This document shows positions 1,365 to 54,809 of a stretch of DNA of 64,000 nucleotides, one piece after another. The position numbers and the translations under genes are program-made. Under the pieces are notes generated by a model that saw nothing but the letters and a program-made list of their open reading frames with translations, ran no database searches and was not told the origin of the DNA. Position 1 is the first letter of the stretch. Every line of letters begins with the position of its first letter. The DNA lies in the NCBI GenBank assembly GCA_013204105.1, contig JABMOM010000001.1, positions 62,001-126,000 of the forward strand, written 5' to 3'. The DNA comes from Flavobacteriales bacterium (GTDB lineage: Bacteria; Bacteroidota; Bacteroidia; Flavobacteriales_G; Salibacteraceae).

Positions 1365-2866
1365 AAAGCAAAAGAATCCTTTTTGCGGCTGTACTTCTTT
1401 CTCTGTACGGCCTCTCAGTTCAGGCTCAGCTCAACACTGAAGCGTTTGATGCGTACATCAAGGCACAATATGAGCGATTTGAACTTCCTGCCATCTCTGT
1501 TGCGATCGTGAAGGACGGTGGCGTTATCCTCACGTCGAACTATGGCAAAAGGTCAGAAAAGGGCGATAAGGCACCGGATCAAAACACCTTGTTTGGGATC
1601 GCTTCTCTTTCCAAAGCCTTCACCGCCGCGAGCATTGGTATGTTGGTAGATGAAGGAAAGCTGAGTTGGGATGACAAGGTGATAGATCACCTTCCTTGGT
1701 TTGAAATGTATGATTCGAATGTGACCCAGCAAATTACGATCGAAGACTTGCTCTGCCATCGTAGCGGTCTCATCACTTTTGATGGAGACTTGTTGTGGTA
1801 CGGAAGTACGTACACACGAGAAGAGGCGGTTAGACGGATACGCTACCGAGCACCAACGTATGCGTTTCGGGAGGAATTTGGATATCAGAACTTGATGTTC
1901 ATGACAGCAGGCGAAGTCATTGAGGAAGTTTCTGGTAAGACCTGGGACGCATTCGTAAAGGAGCGGATCTTGGATCCGTTGCGCATGAACCGCACCACGT
2001 CCTCTTTCGAGACATTCTCGACAGATTTCAATGTAGCAAAGCCGCATTTGCAAGGGAAGGAAATCTTCATGTTGAGCTATGACAACAGCGGAGCCACTGC
2101 GGCGCTCAACTCATCCACAGGAGACATGAGTAAATGGATCCAATTCTGGCTCAATCGAGGCATTGTAGGAGAGGATACCCTTCTCAGCGAGGCTGCTGTG
2201 AAAAAGATATGGACGCTGCACACGCCTTTGGGCCTCGGAGATTTCGATGCAGAAAACGGCATTGACAACAAAGGTTATGGGCAGGGGTGGTTTTTGATGG
2301 ACTACAACGGAAAGAAGGTCATGCACCACGGTGGCGGTCTTCCAGGATACATTTCAAAATTGGCCATCGTGCCAGAAGAGAACCTAGGGATCATTGTATT
2401 GACCAACGACATGACTTCGGTTCCTACACTCTTGATGTATGCTGCCATAGACGCGGCCACGGGCAAGGAGTATAGCAAGTGGAGCGACAGGTTTTATGCC
2501 TTCAAGACAGCAGCCGCGCAAAGCGAGGCGGAGCGTGATGCAAAACGATTGGAAGGGCGAAAGGAAGACCCGTTGTTATTGCCATTGGAGGATTACCTCG
2601 GAACCTATGCAGACGAAATGTACGGCGAAGCACGGGTTTCCCTTGGGGAAGAGGGATTGATTCTATCCCTATTGCCAGCAAAGGAGCTGTTCACCGGAAA
2701 AATGTCTGTTTGGAATGACCATGCCTTCCGGTTTGAGGTAAACGATCCGTTTCTTCCTTATGGAATAGCAACGTTCAAAGTGGAAAGGGACGTGGTTCAA
2801 GGCTTTACCATTGAGCTTCCCAACTACGACTTTCATTTCGACAAACTCAATTTCGTCCGTAAGTAG
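1361..2866 (+). CDS. Serine hydrolase, beta-lactamase / class C family
   Basis: A 501-residue exported protein with signal peptide (residues 1-22). It has the class C beta-lactamase / D-alanyl-D-alanine carboxypeptidase fold motifs: S82-L-S-K85 (nucleophile Ser and Lys), Y175-Q-N177, and an HHGG box at 322-325 in place of KTG. After about residue 405 there is a smaller beta-rich C-terminal domain like the one that follows this family in Bacteroidota hydrolases. The substrate could be a peptide, ester or cell-wall D-amino acid link; the sequence does not decide. The start codon overlaps the stop of the upstream T9SS cargo gene (ATGA), so the two are translationally coupled. Confidence 0.88.
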   Translation: MKSKRILFAAVLLSLYGLSVQAQLNTEAFDAYIKAQYERFELPAISVAIVKDGGVILTSNYGKRSEKGDKAPDQNTLFGIASLSKAFTAASIGMLVDEGKLSWDDKVIDHLPWFEMYDSNVTQQITIEDLLCHRSGLITFDGDLLWYGSTYTREEAVRRIRYRAPTYAFREEFGYQNLMFMTAGEVIEEVSGKTWDAFVKERILDPLRMNRTTSSFETFSTDFNVAKPHLQGKEIFMLSYDNSGATAALNSSTGDMSKWIQFWLNRGIVGEDTLLSEAAVKKIWTLHTPLGLGDFDAENGIDNKGYGQGWFLMDYNGKKVMHHGGGLPGYISKLAIVPEENLGIIVLTNDMTSVPTLLMYAAIDAATGKEYSKWSDRFYAFKTAAAQSEAERDAKRLEGRKEDPLLLPLEDYLGTYADEMYGEARVSLGEEGLILSLLPAKELFTGKMSVWNDHAFRFEVNDPFLPYGIATFKVERDVVQGFTIELPNYDFHFDKLNFVRK

Positions 2867-2894
2867 GCTTCGTCACTCCTCGCTGGCACGAAGC
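2867..2894. terminator. Possible hairpin between convergent genes
   Basis: GCTTCGT (2867-2873) pairs with ACGAAGC (2888-2894) across a 14-base loop, directly after the stop of the serine hydrolase and before the end of the convergent gene. There is no long T tract, so termination activity is uncertain. Confidence 0.3.
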
Positions 2895-2906
2895 ATTTAA
2901 TAGGAC

Positions 2907-5900
2907 TCAAAGCTTCGCCGCTACCACAAAAGGCAGTCGATACCGCTGTGTGTTGGCTTGTAGGTCAAAGGTCTCCACTAAGACTGCGTAGATCCCGACT
3001 TCTGCTTTTCTTCCAATGTCATTCGTCCCGTCCCATGTAATTAGGCCTTCCTTTCCGATGAGTCGATTGGACGCAACGGTTCGAATAAGCCTGCCCTCCT
3101 GAGAGAATACCCTGATTGAAATTGACTGGCCAGGCGGAAGACTTCTCCATTCAATAGAAAGTACGTCTTCATAGCCGTCGTTGTCAGGTGAGATGCGTGC
3201 ATTGGAAAGCTGGACGTGTGCGTCACCTTCTGTCAGCGGTAGTGCTTGTGAATTGATGTAGCCAGGTGTGCCATAGTGATCGATGCTAGAGGCGGAATGC
3301 CAATTGCCAGGATCGGAAGCAGGTTGAAATGTAGATAGGCGTTCGAGGGAGACACCAGCTGTTTCTTGGATCAGCGCAAAGTGCATATCACGGGAATAGT
3401 GAAGGCTGTCCATTACCTCCCCAAAAGGATTTATAAGAAAACACGTTCCTTCGTCATTGGGCAGAGCGGGCAGCTGTGTTATGTGCAATGTCTCATTGCC
3501 TGCAAACGGATAGTTGAGGACCAAGTCGTCAAGGTCCTCATGAAAGGCAATGAGCGCGTTAGGACCAAGTTCAAAGGGATAGTTAACCAAAGGAAATGCG
3601 CGAAGCTCATCGTCATCGCGCTGCGCGAGCGACCAACCCAACAGCGGAATAGAGGACGTAGTGGTATTTGCCAACTCAATGAATTCCGTGCCGTTATTAC
3701 GCGCCTCAAACAAGAGTTCATTGAGCACGACATCTCCCGTATCTGCTAGGTAGGTTGAGTCGATCAACCCGGAGTAGGATTGCCCATCGCATGCCGAGAT
3801 GGAGGAGATGCGCAGGGTATATACTGTGCCCTTTTGCATGTCCGACCCAAGCGTCAGGTTGGCTCTTTGCGCACCATTATCAAAACGAAGTGCAACGGAA
3901 CTGCCATTGAGAGTGGACTCGAAAACGCTTGTCGAATCCACTTTGCGATCAAAGGTCACCTCCACCTGATCTTGACGGATAAAAAGAAGGGAGGTGATTT
4001 CTATAGGGGCCAGCGTCAATTCTGAGAATACGCTATTCACCTCGCCAGGGGTTCCATGTGAAGGATGATTACTCGCCTTCCAGTTACTATCCGATCGGCA
4101 AAGGTCATTCGGATCGATCCGCTCAAGCGACCATCCGCCTGCTTGTTTTTCTGGATCCTGATACCAAGACTTCGCGTATCCCACGACATCAATGGTTGTA
4201 TGGTGCATCATCAGCCGCAAATCATCCGCATCGTTGTTCAGGCTTGGCATCGAAGAAACGGCGAGAACATTACCCTGAAAGAGCAATGCATCATCATCAT
4301 CGCAGATGATGGCATAGCCATCGGGAGCAAGAATGACTTCGGGGATTGAAGCGACGGTTGACTTATCTGCCAATTGAAGTTGAGCAGTACTGATAAGCTT
4401 ATTGGAGCGATTGTAAATCTCAACGTATTCAGCATTGGGTAAAGGCCCCGATGCTTCGGGATGAGGAAGCAGCTCATTGATCACTAAGTCAAAGGGCTGT
4501 GGAAGAACAGGAATACCGAAGAGAATGGTGGTATCCTCCATTTCGTTTCCTTGACAATCCATAAGTCCAGCAATCGAAAGAACATATGGCACACCCTCTT
4601 CAAGGGGAGGGAATGATTTAATCACCAGACGTTCAAGCTGTTTTTCTTTGACGGTTAGCGTGTGACTCACCAGTTCGAAAGAGCCGCTAGAGATGGATAG
4701 TGTGTCCAACGCTTCGCTAAATCCAAGGAGGATTTGGCCGCTGTCTTCAGCTGTCAAGTGGGTAATGCGAGGTGGGGTCAAATCCGGACTGGTATCAAGT
4801 CCTGCGTTTTGTTTTCCAGGGGTGCCTCCATCGGGCGAGAGGGAGGCTTTCCAATTCAAAGGTCCACTGCAAGGATGAAATGGATTCACCCGCTCGAGTG
4901 CGTATCCTCCATCTTGTGCTGTTTCATCTTGATACCAAGCCTTTGTGAAGGAAGTAGCATCGATCAGGTGCGATGATCGCCTCAAGACCACATCGTCACC
5001 GTCGTTGTTCAAACTCGGAAAAGAAGCGAGGCCAATGGCGGTGCCGAACGCATTAAAGAGGGAGGTGTCCTGTACGTCGCAGAGGATTAGGAAGGAATCT
5101 GGCGGCAGTCGAACACCATGAGGTATTGCAGTCGTAGATGTAGCATCGCTCAATGTGAAGCTGTCGAGACGGATAAAGCGTCCAGAGACATTCAAGAGCT
5201 CTATGTATTCACGTTCAGGCAGACCAACCACTGGAGTTGGATCTGCCATGATCTCGTTGATCACAATATCCAAATGGGAAGGGACAAGCCATGCGTAGTA
5301 CGTGAAGGATTGTATGTTCGGCTCAATCGAATTTCCGATCGCGTCGGTCACATTTTCTATACTGAGGTTGAGGGTAGTTCCGATGGGAAAACTGTCGGTG
5401 AAAACCAGCTCAACGGTGAGCGAATCTTCGAGGTCAATGCTGGCCGCCAAGGCCTGGCCTATCCCATTATCCAACGAATAATTTGTTGTTAGCACTGCAG
5501 TAGTAGGGTCAAGGGCTTCATTAAAGACAAGCGAAAGATGCGTCGCATCTAGTGGTTCAACCGAGATCAGAGAGGGAGGTGTCGTATCGGTCACCACGGA
5601 GTCTACTTCCATATTGTCGAAGTAAAAGTCTGAGCTGTTGCTCGAGGTGTACTTGCACCACACCCCAAAGTAGTTGGTATTAATGATGGTGCTATCGATG
5701 GCTGAGCCTTCCAAGACGAAAGGGCTCCCATTTTCAGCGGCGCTCTCTACTTTCCACAGCCCATCGGGATAGCGATGAACAGTGACCCATCGCTCAGAAG
5801 AGGAGGAAAGGACGGTTAGCCCATTGATCAATTGCACTTCGTTTCCACCTGAAAAGGAAAACAGCTCCAGGGCATCATCGCTTCCATTCCTTCCGAGACG

Positions 5901-50793: not shown

Positions 50794-51740
50794 CCTTTGG
50801 ACGCATGTAGTTGCGCCAAATACTCCTGCTCGGTTTGTCCTGGCGTCGGATGATACTCGACGTTTTGCACTCCTAAGGCATTGAGGTCCATGATCGTGGA
50901 GTAGCCGCTGCGGGCAATGACGAGATCTGCGGAAACCAATGCCTCCGCTAGCCGATTGTCATCCAAGTGATGGACCACCGTGAGTTGGTCGATGTAGCTT
51001 TCTTTCGGATCGTCAGGTTTCCCTTCTAGGATCAATGCGCGTTCTCCACCTTCGATCAGTCGCCGCGCGACTTCCGCTTCGAAGATGCTCCGCTGCGGTT
51101 CGGGTCCGCTGATGACCGCAACTACTTTCCACGAATCGCCGCTTTTGGATTCAGGCTTTCCTGCAAATCGACTCAAGGGACCGATATACCGGTAGTGCTT
51201 TGGCATTTTGTCGGGATGAGATAGTTCCCCTGCCAGACCAGGAGATTGGGCGTGATCTGGGATCCACACTTCGTCGTATTGGTTCATGACCCAGCGGTTG
51301 AGCCTATTGATGAGCCCTTCAAAACGAGGACTCATGATCTTGATCTGGTGGCTCACGAATACGCATCGACAATGCCTGGACCATAAGCCGAATCGGGAAT
51401 CGGAAATGACCAGGTCGATCGACTCAGAACGAACGAGTCGCTGCAACTTCCGATGCTCTTTCCAAATGCTGGCCATTAAGCCCAGACCATGCCAAGTGAA
51501 ATGGCGCACCATGTTTCCATCGGCGGGATAGGTGATGGTTTTGAAGGGCAGCGCAACAAAACGAAGAGAGGGAAAATGTTCCTTGAGCAAAGCAAGCGGG
51601 CCACCTGAAGCGGCGACCACAACTTCAAGTCCCAAGTCCAATTGCTCTTGAATCAGCGGAATACATCTCGCAGCGTGACCTAACCCCCAATGCAGAGGAG
51701 CGACTAGAACGCGCTCACGCTTGGGGTCGTTATCGATCAA
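50784..51740 (-). CDS. MurG-like GT-B glycosyltransferase
   Basis: 318 residues with an N-terminal GT-B half (LVAPLHWGLGHAARC, ISDSRFGLW) and a C-terminal half with the ISGPEPQRSIFE loop and an ARSGYSTIMDLNALG donor-binding segment like MurG/GT28. The donor is probably a UDP-sugar; the acceptor is unknown. It overlaps the start of the metalloprotease-side gene by 4 bases (ATGA), so it belongs to the metalloprotease operon, and it overlaps GSCFA at its end. Confidence 0.82.
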   Translation of the reverse strand: MIDNDPKRERVLVAPLHWGLGHAARCIPLIQEQLDLGLEVVVAASGGPLALLKEHFPSLRFVALPFKTITYPADGNMVRHFTWHGLGLMASIWKEHRKLQRLVRSESIDLVISDSRFGLWSRHCRCVFVSHQIKIMSPRFEGLINRLNRWVMNQYDEVWIPDHAQSPGLAGELSHPDKMPKHYRYIGPLSRFAGKPESKSGDSWKVVAVISGPEPQRSIFEAEVARRLIEGGERALILEGKPDDPKESYIDQLTVVHHLDDNRLAEALVSADLVIARSGYSTIMDLNALGVQNVEYHPTPGQTEQEYLAQLHASKGQN

Positions 51741-54196
51741 CGGGCGATGTTGAATGCTTCGATCAGGGTACGTCCGTCACTGAGTTCAACCTGGAGGAAA
51801 TAGGATCCTGAAGGAAGGCCCTGAACGTCGATGCTTCGATCGGTGGTTTCTGTTTGCATGGTTACAGTGCGGCCCAGTTCATCCAAGATCGCCAGCGTAG
51901 CGATGCGTTCCTCTGCGCTCAAGCCGATGTGCAATGCATCCGAAACGGGATTCGGGTAGAGCACGAGCCCTGAGCCGGAAAGTTCATCCACTCCCACTCC
52001 CGACCAACTGTCTTCGTTGCTGAAGGCAGAGCTACCGGCAGGATTGATTGCGAAGACGCGGTAATAGTATTCTGTGCCCAACATACTCACGTTTGGATCG
52101 CTGTAGGTGGTGCTGTTTACGGCTACTGTATCGATCGGCGAGAAGCTACCGTTTCCTCCTACGGACCGCTCGATCACCCAATCGTTTTCATTGGTGAAGG
52201 GATCATTCCAAGCCAGATTGATGGAGCCGGTTGGGAATTGAGGAGCCACGCTCAGAACGATATCGTTGCCCACAGGGGCAAGTGGGTTCACGATGGTGAA
52301 CACGCCTGGATTGTAGTTAAAGAAAACGTTGTCTGCCGCTTCTACGCGGATGCGGTTACCACCGCCTAGATTGTTAGCCATGATCACCATGGCGCTTCCT
52401 GTATTCGGCACATCGGCGACCAAGGTATCCGAGAATGAAAGTCCGTTGTTGTCGTACAACAGGATGTGTACGCTTTGACAATTGATGGGGCTTTGGTCGG
52501 TGCCGGCCACGTCCCATTCTATTTGATAATAGATGCCGCTTTGGGCTTGGCCGCCTGTTGGTGGAGAGGTTACTACGAACGGGCCTTTATCGCCATCTAC
52601 TTCCATCGAAACTTCATCATAGGCCACTCCACCGCCAGCGATGTTGTTGTCCCGAACGGTCAAGCGAAAATTCAAGTCCCTTCCATAGGTTGGATAAAGT
52701 TCACCGTAGGCCAAACTGCCCGTCAGAACGGAAATCAGCCGAGGGAAAGTACGTTCGCCATGGTCAACCGGATCCCAAGAGCGGAATATAGGAGCGTTTA
52801 AGCTTGGGCTTTGGGGATTGCCTTGTGGACCAAAATCTATTTCTTCCCAGCAATAGCTCAGGTCATCGCCTTCGTTATCGGTTGCCGAACCCCTGAGCAC
52901 GAAAGGAGTTTCTTTGGGAATGGAATAGAATGCTGGGTCGACAGATACTTCAGGCGCTGTATTTCCTGTGCTAGATTGCTGACTGCATCCATTTCCGCCA
53001 CCATTAAATGCATACTGACCCATGCTGTTGTAGGATCCCGCGTTGAAGTAATCGTCTGAATTGTTCTGTAAATTCTGTGGCGAGCAAATGCCCGCATAGG
53101 CCATGATGGTAGATCCACTTCCCGGCTCAAGTCTATTGCTTGAAGAAAAGCTAGCATTCGACAAGCAGGATCCCGCGCTACCATTGAAGGAATGCGGCCC
53201 ACCGAATTGGTGCCCTATTTCGTGGGCTACGTAATCGATATCAAAGGGATCGCCCGTTGGGCTATTGGTGCCTGTGACACCGCTCGCTTTACTTCCGCCA
53301 CACACAACACCTAGTCCAGCGAGTCCACCTCCACCGGTACTGAACACATGCCCGATGTCATAACTAGAACTGCCTACGAGGCTATTAAGAACACTATCGT
53401 TGGCGTTGATCATTTGCCAAGCACTGTTATTTTGATACGGGTCGGTCGTGGAATTCAAAAAGATCAGATCATCATTGTTGCCGATCAATTGCATGGTAAT
53501 CGAAAACTCTCTTTCATACACGCCATTTATCCGGTTCATTGATACCACCATGGCGCTGAGCACACCGGAAAGGGTGCCCCCGTGGAAGGAAGCATACTCA
53601 CCCGTGCAAGCCAAAGCCAAGCGGTAGGTTCTCAATGTCTCGCCTGATTGCCTTGCACCTCGGGCCATTGCTACCTCTGCAGGGCCGGATTGACCACTGT
53701 CGTCCAACAAACATTGGTGGTCTTTGGTATGCTTGTAAAAATCGACGTAGTCTTTGCGGTTGTAGGTGTGGTATGTCTGTGCTTCATCGCCGATAGGATC
53801 AATGTACAAGGTGCCTTTGGTCGTAAAGAGGATGGCGTGCAATCCCTTGTCGGTATATCCGATGCGCCCACTCACGCCTTTCCCTTTCACCTTGTAGGTT
53901 TTGATGTTTGGGAAGCGCTCGGCCAGTTCGGGGGCCATGATGGGACTTTCATACGCTTCCAATTCAAGCGTGTTTCCCGAAGGATCGGGTAACGTGATGG
54001 TAACCCCAGAACTGCGTCCTGCTTCGGTCATCAGGGGAGCGTCAACCAGGCTGGTTTTCAAGCCGTTGTCATCAAGGGTATATACATAAGAGGTGTACCC
54101 CGTTTTCAGGGTTTTGACCTCGTTGATAAGGCTTTGAGCGTTGAGGCTCAGACTGGTTGCAAGCAACACAAGTGTTGCGAAGTATCTGTTTTTCAT
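51737..54196 (-). CDS. Reprolysin-type (M12B-like) metalloprotease with T9SS domain
   Basis: 819 residues from the ATG at 54196 (MKNRYFAT...), which starts a clean signal peptide; a longer start at 54244 lies inside the upstream gene. A propeptide-like region (about 22-150, containing MAPELAERFPNIKTYKVKG) precedes the catalytic domain. The zinc motif is H325-E326-I-G-H329-Q-F-G-G-P-H335, followed by a Met-turn (IMAYAGIC). Fibronectin-type segment (about 640-740) and type A T9SS domain (from about 750, LYPNPVSD) complete it. It is a secreted zinc protease, probably made as an inactive zymogen. Confidence 0.93.
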   Translation of the reverse strand: MKNRYFATLVLLATSLSLNAQSLINEVKTLKTGYTSYVYTLDDNGLKTSLVDAPLMTEAGRSSGVTITLPDPSGNTLELEAYESPIMAPELAERFPNIKTYKVKGKGVSGRIGYTDKGLHAILFTTKGTLYIDPIGDEAQTYHTYNRKDYVDFYKHTKDHQCLLDDSGQSGPAEVAMARGARQSGETLRTYRLALACTGEYASFHGGTLSGVLSAMVVSMNRINGVYEREFSITMQLIGNNDDLIFLNSTTDPYQNNSAWQMINANDSVLNSLVGSSSYDIGHVFSTGGGGLAGLGVVCGGSKASGVTGTNSPTGDPFDIDYVAHEIGHQFGGPHSFNGSAGSCLSNASFSSSNRLEPGSGSTIMAYAGICSPQNLQNNSDDYFNAGSYNSMGQYAFNGGGNGCSQQSSTGNTAPEVSVDPAFYSIPKETPFVLRGSATDNEGDDLSYCWEEIDFGPQGNPQSPSLNAPIFRSWDPVDHGERTFPRLISVLTGSLAYGELYPTYGRDLNFRLTVRDNNIAGGGVAYDEVSMEVDGDKGPFVVTSPPTGGQAQSGIYYQIEWDVAGTDQSPINCQSVHILLYDNNGLSFSDTLVADVPNTGSAMVIMANNLGGGNRIRVEAADNVFFNYNPGVFTIVNPLAPVGNDIVLSVAPQFPTGSINLAWNDPFTNENDWVIERSVGGNGSFSPIDTVAVNSTTYSDPNVSMLGTEYYYRVFAINPAGSSAFSNEDSWSGVGVDELSGSGLVLYPNPVSDALHIGLSAEERIATLAILDELGRTVTMQTETTDRSIDVQGLPSGSYFLQVELSDGRTLIEAFNIAR

Positions 54197-54200
54197 AGGT

Positions 54201-54809
54201 TTAGCGATAGGAGCCATCTCGAGGGGCACTTGGGGGCAAGGCATCCTCGGTATAAACGGCGTAGTAAGATTTGCTTCCTTTTAATATGGGCGAGATGAGA
54301 TGCTTTGTTCCTGTTCCGATAATCTCAGCAAACAGCCCTTCTTCATTGGTGTCTAGCCTCACGCTTAGTTTCCCATCAGCAGACTTCCCTTTATAACTCC
54401 GGATCTCCGGAAATTTTGCCGCCAGTTCCGGGCTCATGGTCTGCGCGTTCACGACCAAGAAAGAGACCAATCCATCCAACGTAGGCAGCGCCAAAGCCAT
54501 GTTTCCTTGATCCAATGCATAGGTCAATTGATCGAAGTCACATGCATAGGCATCAAACGACGAAAGCTCAATGCGATGTTCCAGGTCTGGAAATGAATAG
54601 GCATCCCGTTTTACCCAAAGCGCTTCGACATCGACCTCTTCTTCGACGTTCCCCTCGGTTTCAGCAGACTCTGTTGAAGCAGCATCGATGGCTTGAGGGG
54701 CGTCTTCAACTTGCACGGCGGGGGTTTCGGCCCCATCGCTTCCTTTTCGCTTGGAGGAAGAACACGCTGCTAGACAAAGGCACAGCAGGATCGTTAGGTA
54801 TTTCAGCAT
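54201..54809 (-). CDS. Lipoprotein resembling the metalloprotease propeptide
   Basis: 202 residues from the ATG at 54809, which begins a lipoprotein signal with LAAC (Cys16). An acidic linker (about 25-65) is followed by a domain similar to the N-terminal propeptide of the adjacent protease: MSPELAAKFPEIRSYKGKS (125-143) against MAPELAERFPNIKTYKVKG (87-105), with the same spacing to the preceding LP and following GL and PI residues. It has no catalytic domain. It may inhibit the protease, escort it, or protect the cell. The protease gene starts 4 bases downstream. Confidence 0.85.
   Translation of the reverse strand: MLKYLTILLCLCLAACSSSKRKGSDGAETPAVQVEDAPQAIDAASTESAETEGNVEEEVDVEALWVKRDAYSFPDLEHRIELSSFDAYACDFDQLTYALDQGNMALALPTLDGLVSFLVVNAQTMSPELAAKFPEIRSYKGKSADGKLSVRLDTNEEGLFAEIIGTGTKHLISPILKGSKSYYAVYTEDALPPSAPRDGSYR

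What the first reader, a model, noticed from the sequence alone, without database searches (positions are those of the whole stretch)
51737..54809. Free-standing lipoprotein copy of a protease propeptide beside its metalloprotease
Seen: the lipoprotein at 54201-54809 has the stretch M125-S143 aligning to M87-G105 of the reprolysin-type protease (11 of 19 residues identical), with the same spacing to preceding LP and following GL and PI residues. It has its own lipobox and is encoded 4 bases upstream. Family knowledge: propeptides of such proteases keep them inactive or help folding. Inference: the lipoprotein is a lipid-anchored inhibitor, immunity protein or chaperone for a T9SS-exported protease. 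I know of no described two-gene system of this kind.
Basis: partly seen in the sequence, partly recalled or inferred. Interest (0 to 1): 0.68.

Follow-up and report, generated by a model that had tools for sequence, protein, structure and literature searches.

The report
Membrane-anchored spare prodomain beside its protease
Next to the gene of a secreted metal-dependent protease, this bacterium keeps a separate, membrane-anchored copy of the part that normally holds such proteases inactive; the gene pair is old and kept in several families of Bacteroidota, so it is probably a safety lock rather than a chance similarity.

Summary
The lipoprotein (54201-54809) and the prodomain of the adjacent reprolysin-type T9SS protease (51737-54196) are homologous: BLASTP E=2e-7 over 97 aa, and the prodomain is the lipoprotein's only other match in its genome. 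AlphaFold gives the same order of strands and helices. Both models match the same solved folds: CpaB, the membrane-bound chaperone of the Acinetobacter protease CpaA, the ADAM17 prodomain and profragilysin. The pair is conserved. In the window's family, 13 of the 14 genomes with the protease also have the lipoprotein; none of the other 21 has either. I found 47 free-standing copies in six families, all directly upstream of a reprolysin with its own prodomain. On a tree the free-standing forms need only 2 changes (shuffled mean 35), so they look like one ancient lineage, not recent copies of their neighbours. Most end in an aromatic-acidic motif at the spacing where fused prodomains carry their putative zinc-blocking cysteine. 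The window's own copy ends Tyr-Arg instead. Best reading: a dedicated trans-prodomain that restrains its protease; function is inferred, not shown. "No described two-gene system" is wrong: CpaA/CpaB and the Tannerella potempins are precedents. New variant of a known kind.

The parts
54201..54809 (-). Gene of the free-standing prodomain lipoprotein (202 aa)
   Evidence: 12 relatives in the genus/family aligned
54762..54809 (-). Signal peptide with lipobox LAAC; Cys16 is the lipidated residue
   Evidence: sequence; Cys16 invariant in the 13 relatives of the family
54624..54761 (-). Low-complexity acidic linker, residues 17-62, predicted disordered
   Evidence: pLDDT under 50 for 16-59; dN/dS 0.55 against 0.06 for the core
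54240..54617 (-). Folded prodomain-like core, residues 65-190
   Evidence: AlphaFold2 pLDDT mostly above 85; matches CpaB Z 10.3 and ADAM17 prodomain Z 7.7-9.3
54381..54437 (-).
   Evidence: 11/19 identical to protease M87-G105; inside the 97-aa BLASTP match
54540..54542 (-). Cys90, invariant in the 13 lipoproteins of this family only; role unknown
54204..54239 (-). C-terminal tail, residues 191-202 (LPPSAPRDGSYR), placed where fused prodomains carry the switch cysteine; most relatives have Phe/Tyr-Glu/Asp here, this copy has Tyr-Arg
51737..54196 (-). Partner gene: reprolysin-type (M12B-like) T9SS protease, 819 aa
   Evidence: the only Reprolysin_4 protein found in this genome
53735..54127 (-). 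Protease's own (cis) prodomain core, residues 24-154
   Evidence: same element order as the lipoprotein core; CpaB Z 9.1
53711..53713 (-). Cys162 (KDHQC), putative cysteine switch of the cis prodomain
   Evidence: invariant in the 13 partner proteases; Cys at 12-17 residues past the last core strand in 75 of 86 fused prodomains
53012..53638 (-). Catalytic domain, residues 187-395 (zinc motif HEIGHQFGGPH 325-335)
   Evidence: Reprolysin_4 E=9.5e-35
51773..51961 (-). T9SS C-terminal sorting domain, residues 746-808
   Evidence: Por_Secre_tail E=3.2e-11; TIGR04183 E=4.4e-9

Best explanation
The lipoprotein is a free-standing prodomain that acts in trans on the protease encoded right after it. Shown: homology and shared fold with the cis prodomain; strict gene pairing; an ancient, separate lineage of free-standing forms; purifying selection on the folded core; a tail in most relatives with an aromatic-acidic pair at the spacing of the cis cysteine switch. 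Inferred: the lipid anchor holds it in the cell envelope, probably facing the periplasm because acidic lipoprotein-export residues are missing after Cys16. There it docks on the catalytic domain as an ADAM or CpaB prodomain does, and its C-terminal tail lies in the active-site cleft. This keeps protease that has lost or loosened its own prodomain inactive until T9SS export. In most relatives a Glu/Asp would stand in for the zinc-binding cysteine; in the window's own copy the tail could only block sterically. A help to folding in the same complex is possible, as for CpaB.
For: Homology. Same element order in both AF2 models, and both match the same chains: 6o38_H = CpaB (lipoprotein Z 10.3, 111 aligned; prodomain Z 9.1, 108 aligned), the ADAM17 prodomain and profragilysin. 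Both alignments end at CpaB residue 175, reached by lipoprotein residue 202 and protease Cys162. Published: CpaB's C-terminal tail blocks the CpaA active site (PMC7542363); ADAM17's prodomain barrel binds away from the cleft while its C-terminal switch region fills it (PMC12184519). Pairing: 13/14 protease-bearing genomes of the family, 0/21 without, in at least three gene neighbourhoods; 47 free-standing copies, all directly upstream of a reprolysin. One or two origins: 2 changes against shuffled mean 35.4; a single clade is not rejected (p-AU 0.46). Tail: 32/47 have [FYW][ED] at 13-16 residues past the anchor (shuffled mean 5.0, max 14 over 2000 shuffles); 11/11 fused prodomains without the Cys have Glu there, 6 changes on the tree. 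Core dN/dS 0.06.
Against: No activity, binding or localisation data. The window's copy and its closest relative end Tyr-Arg, so the acid-switch detail does not apply to it as such; about nine of 47 copies lack a clear aromatic-acid tail. The partner already has a cis prodomain with a conserved Cys, so why it needs a second one is unexplained. G001, same genus, has an intact protease and no lipoprotein. Copies in family f51 mostly show no lipobox, so the anchor is not universal. There is no sequence-level match to CpaB, so that link is fold only. The catalytic domain model was poor (pLDDT mostly under 50), so docking could not be examined.
Confidence: 0.6

Rival explanations
1. Dedicated folding and export chaperone. 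The lipoprotein is mainly needed for the protease to fold or reach the T9SS, as CpaB is for CpaA and Lif foldases are for lipases; any inhibition is a side effect.
For: Best fold match is CpaB, required for CpaA secretion (PMC4713064, PMC7542363). Lipoprotein encoded first, so it is made before its client.
Against: CpaB is the separately encoded partner of CpaA, whereas this client keeps a full cis prodomain. G001 keeps an intact protease without the lipoprotein. In an even sample of 395 genomes of the phylum, 74 have this prodomain and only 3 have a free-standing copy, so most such proteases do without one.
Confidence: 0.22
2. Surface-exposed immunity protein of the potempin type: it sits on the outside and stops mature, already secreted protease from attacking the cell.
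For: Potempins are small lipoproteins encoded directly upstream of the Tannerella proteases they inhibit (PMC7296668).
Against: No acidic residue at +2 to +6 after the lipidated Cys in any of the 13 family copies (CSSSKRK and the like). The single SusD lipoprotein of six of these genomes has acidic residues there (CNKFLDLD and the like). The Bacteroidetes surface signal needs acidic residues (PMC5080379). The signal rule has not been tested in this genus.
Confidence: 0.12
3. Tether or adaptor: the prodomain fold is used to hold the protease at the membrane, with no control of activity.
For: Lipid anchor plus a long flexible linker.
Against: The T9SS tail already gives the protease a route to the surface. 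Conservation of the tail at the switch position is not explained. Copies in family f51 mostly lack the anchor.
Confidence: 0.04
4. Relic: a leftover duplicate of the prodomain without function.
For: Lost in G001; linker evolves fast.
Against: Core dN/dS 0.06, retention with the protease across families and neighbourhoods, ancient lineage.
Confidence: 0.02

Closest known systems
CpaA/CpaB (Acinetobacter; T2SS adamalysin-like protease and membrane-bound chaperone; PDB 6o38)
   Same: Two adjacent genes; membrane-anchored partner with the same fold (Z 10.3); metzincin client; CpaB tail blocks the client's active site (PMC7542363)
   Different: CpaB has a transmembrane helix and is encoded downstream; its client goes through T2SS. 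Here the partner is lipid-anchored, upstream, and the T9SS client keeps its own prodomain. No sequence-level match found
Potempins with KLIKK proteases (Tannerella forsythia)
   Same: Small lipoprotein gene directly upstream of the secreted protease it inhibits (PMC7296668)
   Different: Client proteases are of other families (e.g. mirolysin, a pappalysin); I know of no report that potempins are prodomain homologues (own knowledge, not tested)
ADAM17 prodomain and profragilysin (BFT) prodomain
   Same: Same fold class (Z 7.7-9.3 and about 5.5); ADAM17 uses a C-terminal switch cysteine (PMC12184519)
   Different: Those are parts of the protease chain; here the domain is a separate protein
Propeptide-like inhibitors: SpeB/Spi, and I9 and I29 inhibitors (own knowledge); C10/Bti pairs of Bacteroides
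   Same: Separate inhibitor gene beside the protease; for Spi, I9 and I29 resemblance to the propeptide
   Different: Cysteine or serine proteases and unrelated folds; Bti proteins are staphostatin-like, some are lipoproteins (PMC3462683)

Membership tests
Reprolysin/ADAM-type metzincin prodomain | Sequence homology to the prodomain of an M12B-like protease | tested here: met
Reprolysin/ADAM-type metzincin prodomain | Prodomain fold | tested here: met
Reprolysin/ADAM-type metzincin prodomain | Switch cysteine after the core | tested here: not met
   No Cys in the tail; Glu/Asp in most relatives, Arg in the window copy
Reprolysin/ADAM-type metzincin prodomain | Part of the same chain as the catalytic domain | tested here: not met
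   separate ORF with its own signal peptide and stop
CpaB-type protease chaperone | Adjacent to the protease gene and anchored to the membrane | tested here: met
   lipid anchor rather than transmembrane helix
CpaB-type protease chaperone | Fold | tested here: met
   Z 10.3, 4.1 A rmsd, 111 residues
CpaB-type protease chaperone | Sequence relationship | tested here: inconclusive
   profile search of PDB sequences did not return CpaB
CpaB-type protease chaperone | Needed for protease secretion; tail in the active site | not testable with these tools
   needs a knockout and a complex structure
Potempin | Small lipoprotein directly upstream of a secreted protease | tested here: met
Potempin | Sequence or fold homology to potempins | not tested
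   no potempin sequence was compared
Potempin | Inhibits the neighbouring protease | not testable with these tools
   needs an assay
Bacterial lipoprotein | Signal peptide with lipobox cysteine | tested here: met
   MLKYLTILLCLCLAAC; Cys invariant in 13 relatives

The most novel reading that the evidence does not exclude
An undescribed, ancient class of trans-acting prodomains in Bacteroidia: one early lineage split off from the reprolysin prodomain, stayed beside its protease in several families, and swapped the zinc-binding cysteine for an aromatic-Glu/Asp tail. Each protease would be locked twice, by a cis cysteine switch and a separate acidic switch that outlives removal of the cis prodomain.
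Probability: 0.4. Interest if true: 0.72.

Novelty: new variant of a known kind. Interest (0 to 1): 0.58.

Why it matters
How T9SS bacteria keep large secreted metalloproteases from damaging their own envelope is poorly understood. A conserved, separately encoded prodomain beside the protease gives a testable answer. It links CpaB, so far seen as an unusual T2SS chaperone, to the ADAM prodomain fold and to Bacteroidota. If the tail model holds, the natural Cys/Glu interchange at the switch position, in both cis and trans prodomains, offers many variants for studying zymogen latency.

Tried and rejected
Pfam and NCBIfam give no domain for the lipoprotein. A first, position-free count of the tail motif was discarded because chance gives it in 38% of tails; it was replaced by the anchored count with shuffles. 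Recent duplication from the neighbouring prodomain was considered and rejected on the tree. A profile search of PDB sequences found no CpaB, ADAM or BFT match, so the link is by fold only. The protease catalytic domain was poorly modelled, so docking could not be judged. A plasmid search with a free-standing copy found only a fused prodomain in a Legionella lytica plasmid. The idea that pairing goes only with Cys-type proteases was not used, because the loci were partly picked for free-standing copies.

Full report
CHECK OF THE OBSERVATION. The coordinates, the 4-base gap, the lipobox and the 11/19 identity are all correct. The similarity covers 97 residues (BLASTP E=2e-7), and in the whole genome the lipoprotein matches only itself and this prodomain at E<=10. 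Across 13 lipoproteins the profile finds the cis prodomain at E=1.1e-8 in this genome.

STRUCTURE. With a 13-sequence alignment, AlphaFold2 models the lipoprotein core with high confidence (104 residues at pLDDT 90 or more). Order of elements: E86-90 H92-100 E105-110 E113-121 H127-132 E137-143 E149-155 E158-165 E168-174 E182-186. The protease prodomain, modelled separately, gives E36-41 H43-51 E65-70 E76-83 H89-94 E99-105 E108-115 E118-125 E128-134 E141-146, the same order throughout. The first solved structures matched by the lipoprotein are CpaB of the CpaA/CpaB complex (6o38, Z 10.3), the ADAM17 prodomain (Z 7.7-9.3) and profragilysin (Z about 5.5); unrelated folds follow at 4.8 and below. 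The protease model matches ADAM17 zymogens (Z 11-12), CpaB (Z 9.1, 3.3 A, 108 residues, all within the prodomain) and profragilysin. Both alignments to CpaB end at its residue 175, reached by lipoprotein residue 202 and protease Cys162. The tail has low pLDDT, so this is only suggestive.

PAIR CONSERVATION. In the GTDB family of the window, 14 of 35 genomes have the protease, 13 of these have the lipoprotein, and none of the 21 without the protease has it. The pair sits in at least three different neighbourhoods and is adjacent each time. The exception, G001, has an intact protease, and T9SS-type reading frames stand where the lipoprotein would be. The window genome has one Reprolysin_4 protein, so the pair is one to one. 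Searches in other families and fetched loci gave 47 free-standing copies in families coded f1, f24, f29, f37, f51 and f63, each directly upstream of a reprolysin with its own prodomain (in two cases the protease is cut by a contig or locus end). They are a minority: in an even sample of 395 genomes of the phylum, 74 have the prodomain and three have a free-standing copy.

ORIGIN. In a tree of 43 free-standing and 76 fused domains, with tail columns left out, two changes separate the forms (shuffled mean 35.4), and a single clade is not rejected (p-AU 0.46). Many forks are unresolved because there are only 139 columns. Free-standing forms therefore look like one old lineage that travels with the protease. 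Core dN/dS between the two closest genomes is 0.06, against 0.55 for the linker and 0.09 for the protease.

THE TAIL. Fused prodomains carry a cysteine 12-17 residues after the last core strand in 75 of 86 cases. The other 11 all have Glu at about the same place, which needs six changes on the tree. The free-standing forms mostly end shortly past this place, and 32 of 47 have an aromatic followed directly by Glu or Asp at 13-16 residues (shuffled tails: mean 5.0, maximum 14); six more have Phe/Trp-x-Glu. In seven of 26 measurable pairs the acid falls at exactly the partner's cysteine offset, and in the other 19 within one to three residues. The window's own copy and its closest relative end Tyr-Arg. 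The zinc role is inferred from ADAM17, whose C184 coordinates zinc and whose preceding region fills the cleft (PMC12184519), and from CpaB, whose tail blocks CpaA (PMC7542363).

PLACE IN THE CELL. None of the 13 family copies has an acidic residue at +2 to +6 after the lipidated cysteine, while SusD of six of these genomes does. By the published Bacteroidetes export signal (PMC5080379) this predicts a periplasm-facing protein; the rule is untested here. Most copies of family f51 have a signal peptide without a clear lipobox.

MECHANISM. Taken together: a trans-prodomain held in the envelope that docks on the catalytic domain and blocks the cleft, guarding against protease activated before export (0.6). 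A chaperone role as for CpaB is the main rival (0.22). Against an obligate foldase: the client keeps its own prodomain, G001 does without, and so do most such proteases. Steps shown: homology, fold, pairing, lineage, selection, tail pattern. Steps inferred: binding, inhibition, location, timing.

NOVELTY. The concept has precedents: CpaA/CpaB, potempins, C10 protease/inhibitor pairs and Spi. What I found no report of is this family, its spread in Bacteroidia, a client that has both a cis and a trans prodomain, and the acidic tail in place of the cysteine. The literature search covered open-access papers only.

Noticed in passing
window 54540-54542 (Cys90 of the lipoprotein): A second cysteine, in the first core strand, is invariant in all 13 lipoproteins of this family and absent in the free-standing copies of other families and in the partner prodomains. 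A free thiol, an intermolecular disulfide or a metal ligand is possible.
   Followed up: partly
L074:2107-4503: In G001, of the same genus, the lipoprotein is missing and the space before the protease holds a T9SS-type protein split over two reading frames (2107-3396 and 3439-4503).
   Followed up: partly
L042 and L044 (G010): The protease gene is cut at the end of contig C9 and appears again, in two frames, at the end of contig C2; an assembly break or a broken gene.
   Followed up: no
fused prodomains L097, L101, L104, L106, L108, L109, L114, L138, L139, L141, L017: The switch cysteine is replaced by Glu in these protease prodomains, with six changes on the tree, suggesting repeated Cys-to-Glu exchange in zymogen switches.
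   Followed up: partly
plasmid NZ_CP071528.1 (Legionella lytica), 326589-327029: The same prodomain family occurs in a reprolysin-like metallopeptidase outside Bacteroidota (tblastn E=1e-11).
   Followed up: no
L178, L185 and L186 (family f51): Two reprolysins of the family lie close together, with one free-standing prodomain upstream of one of them.
   Followed up: no
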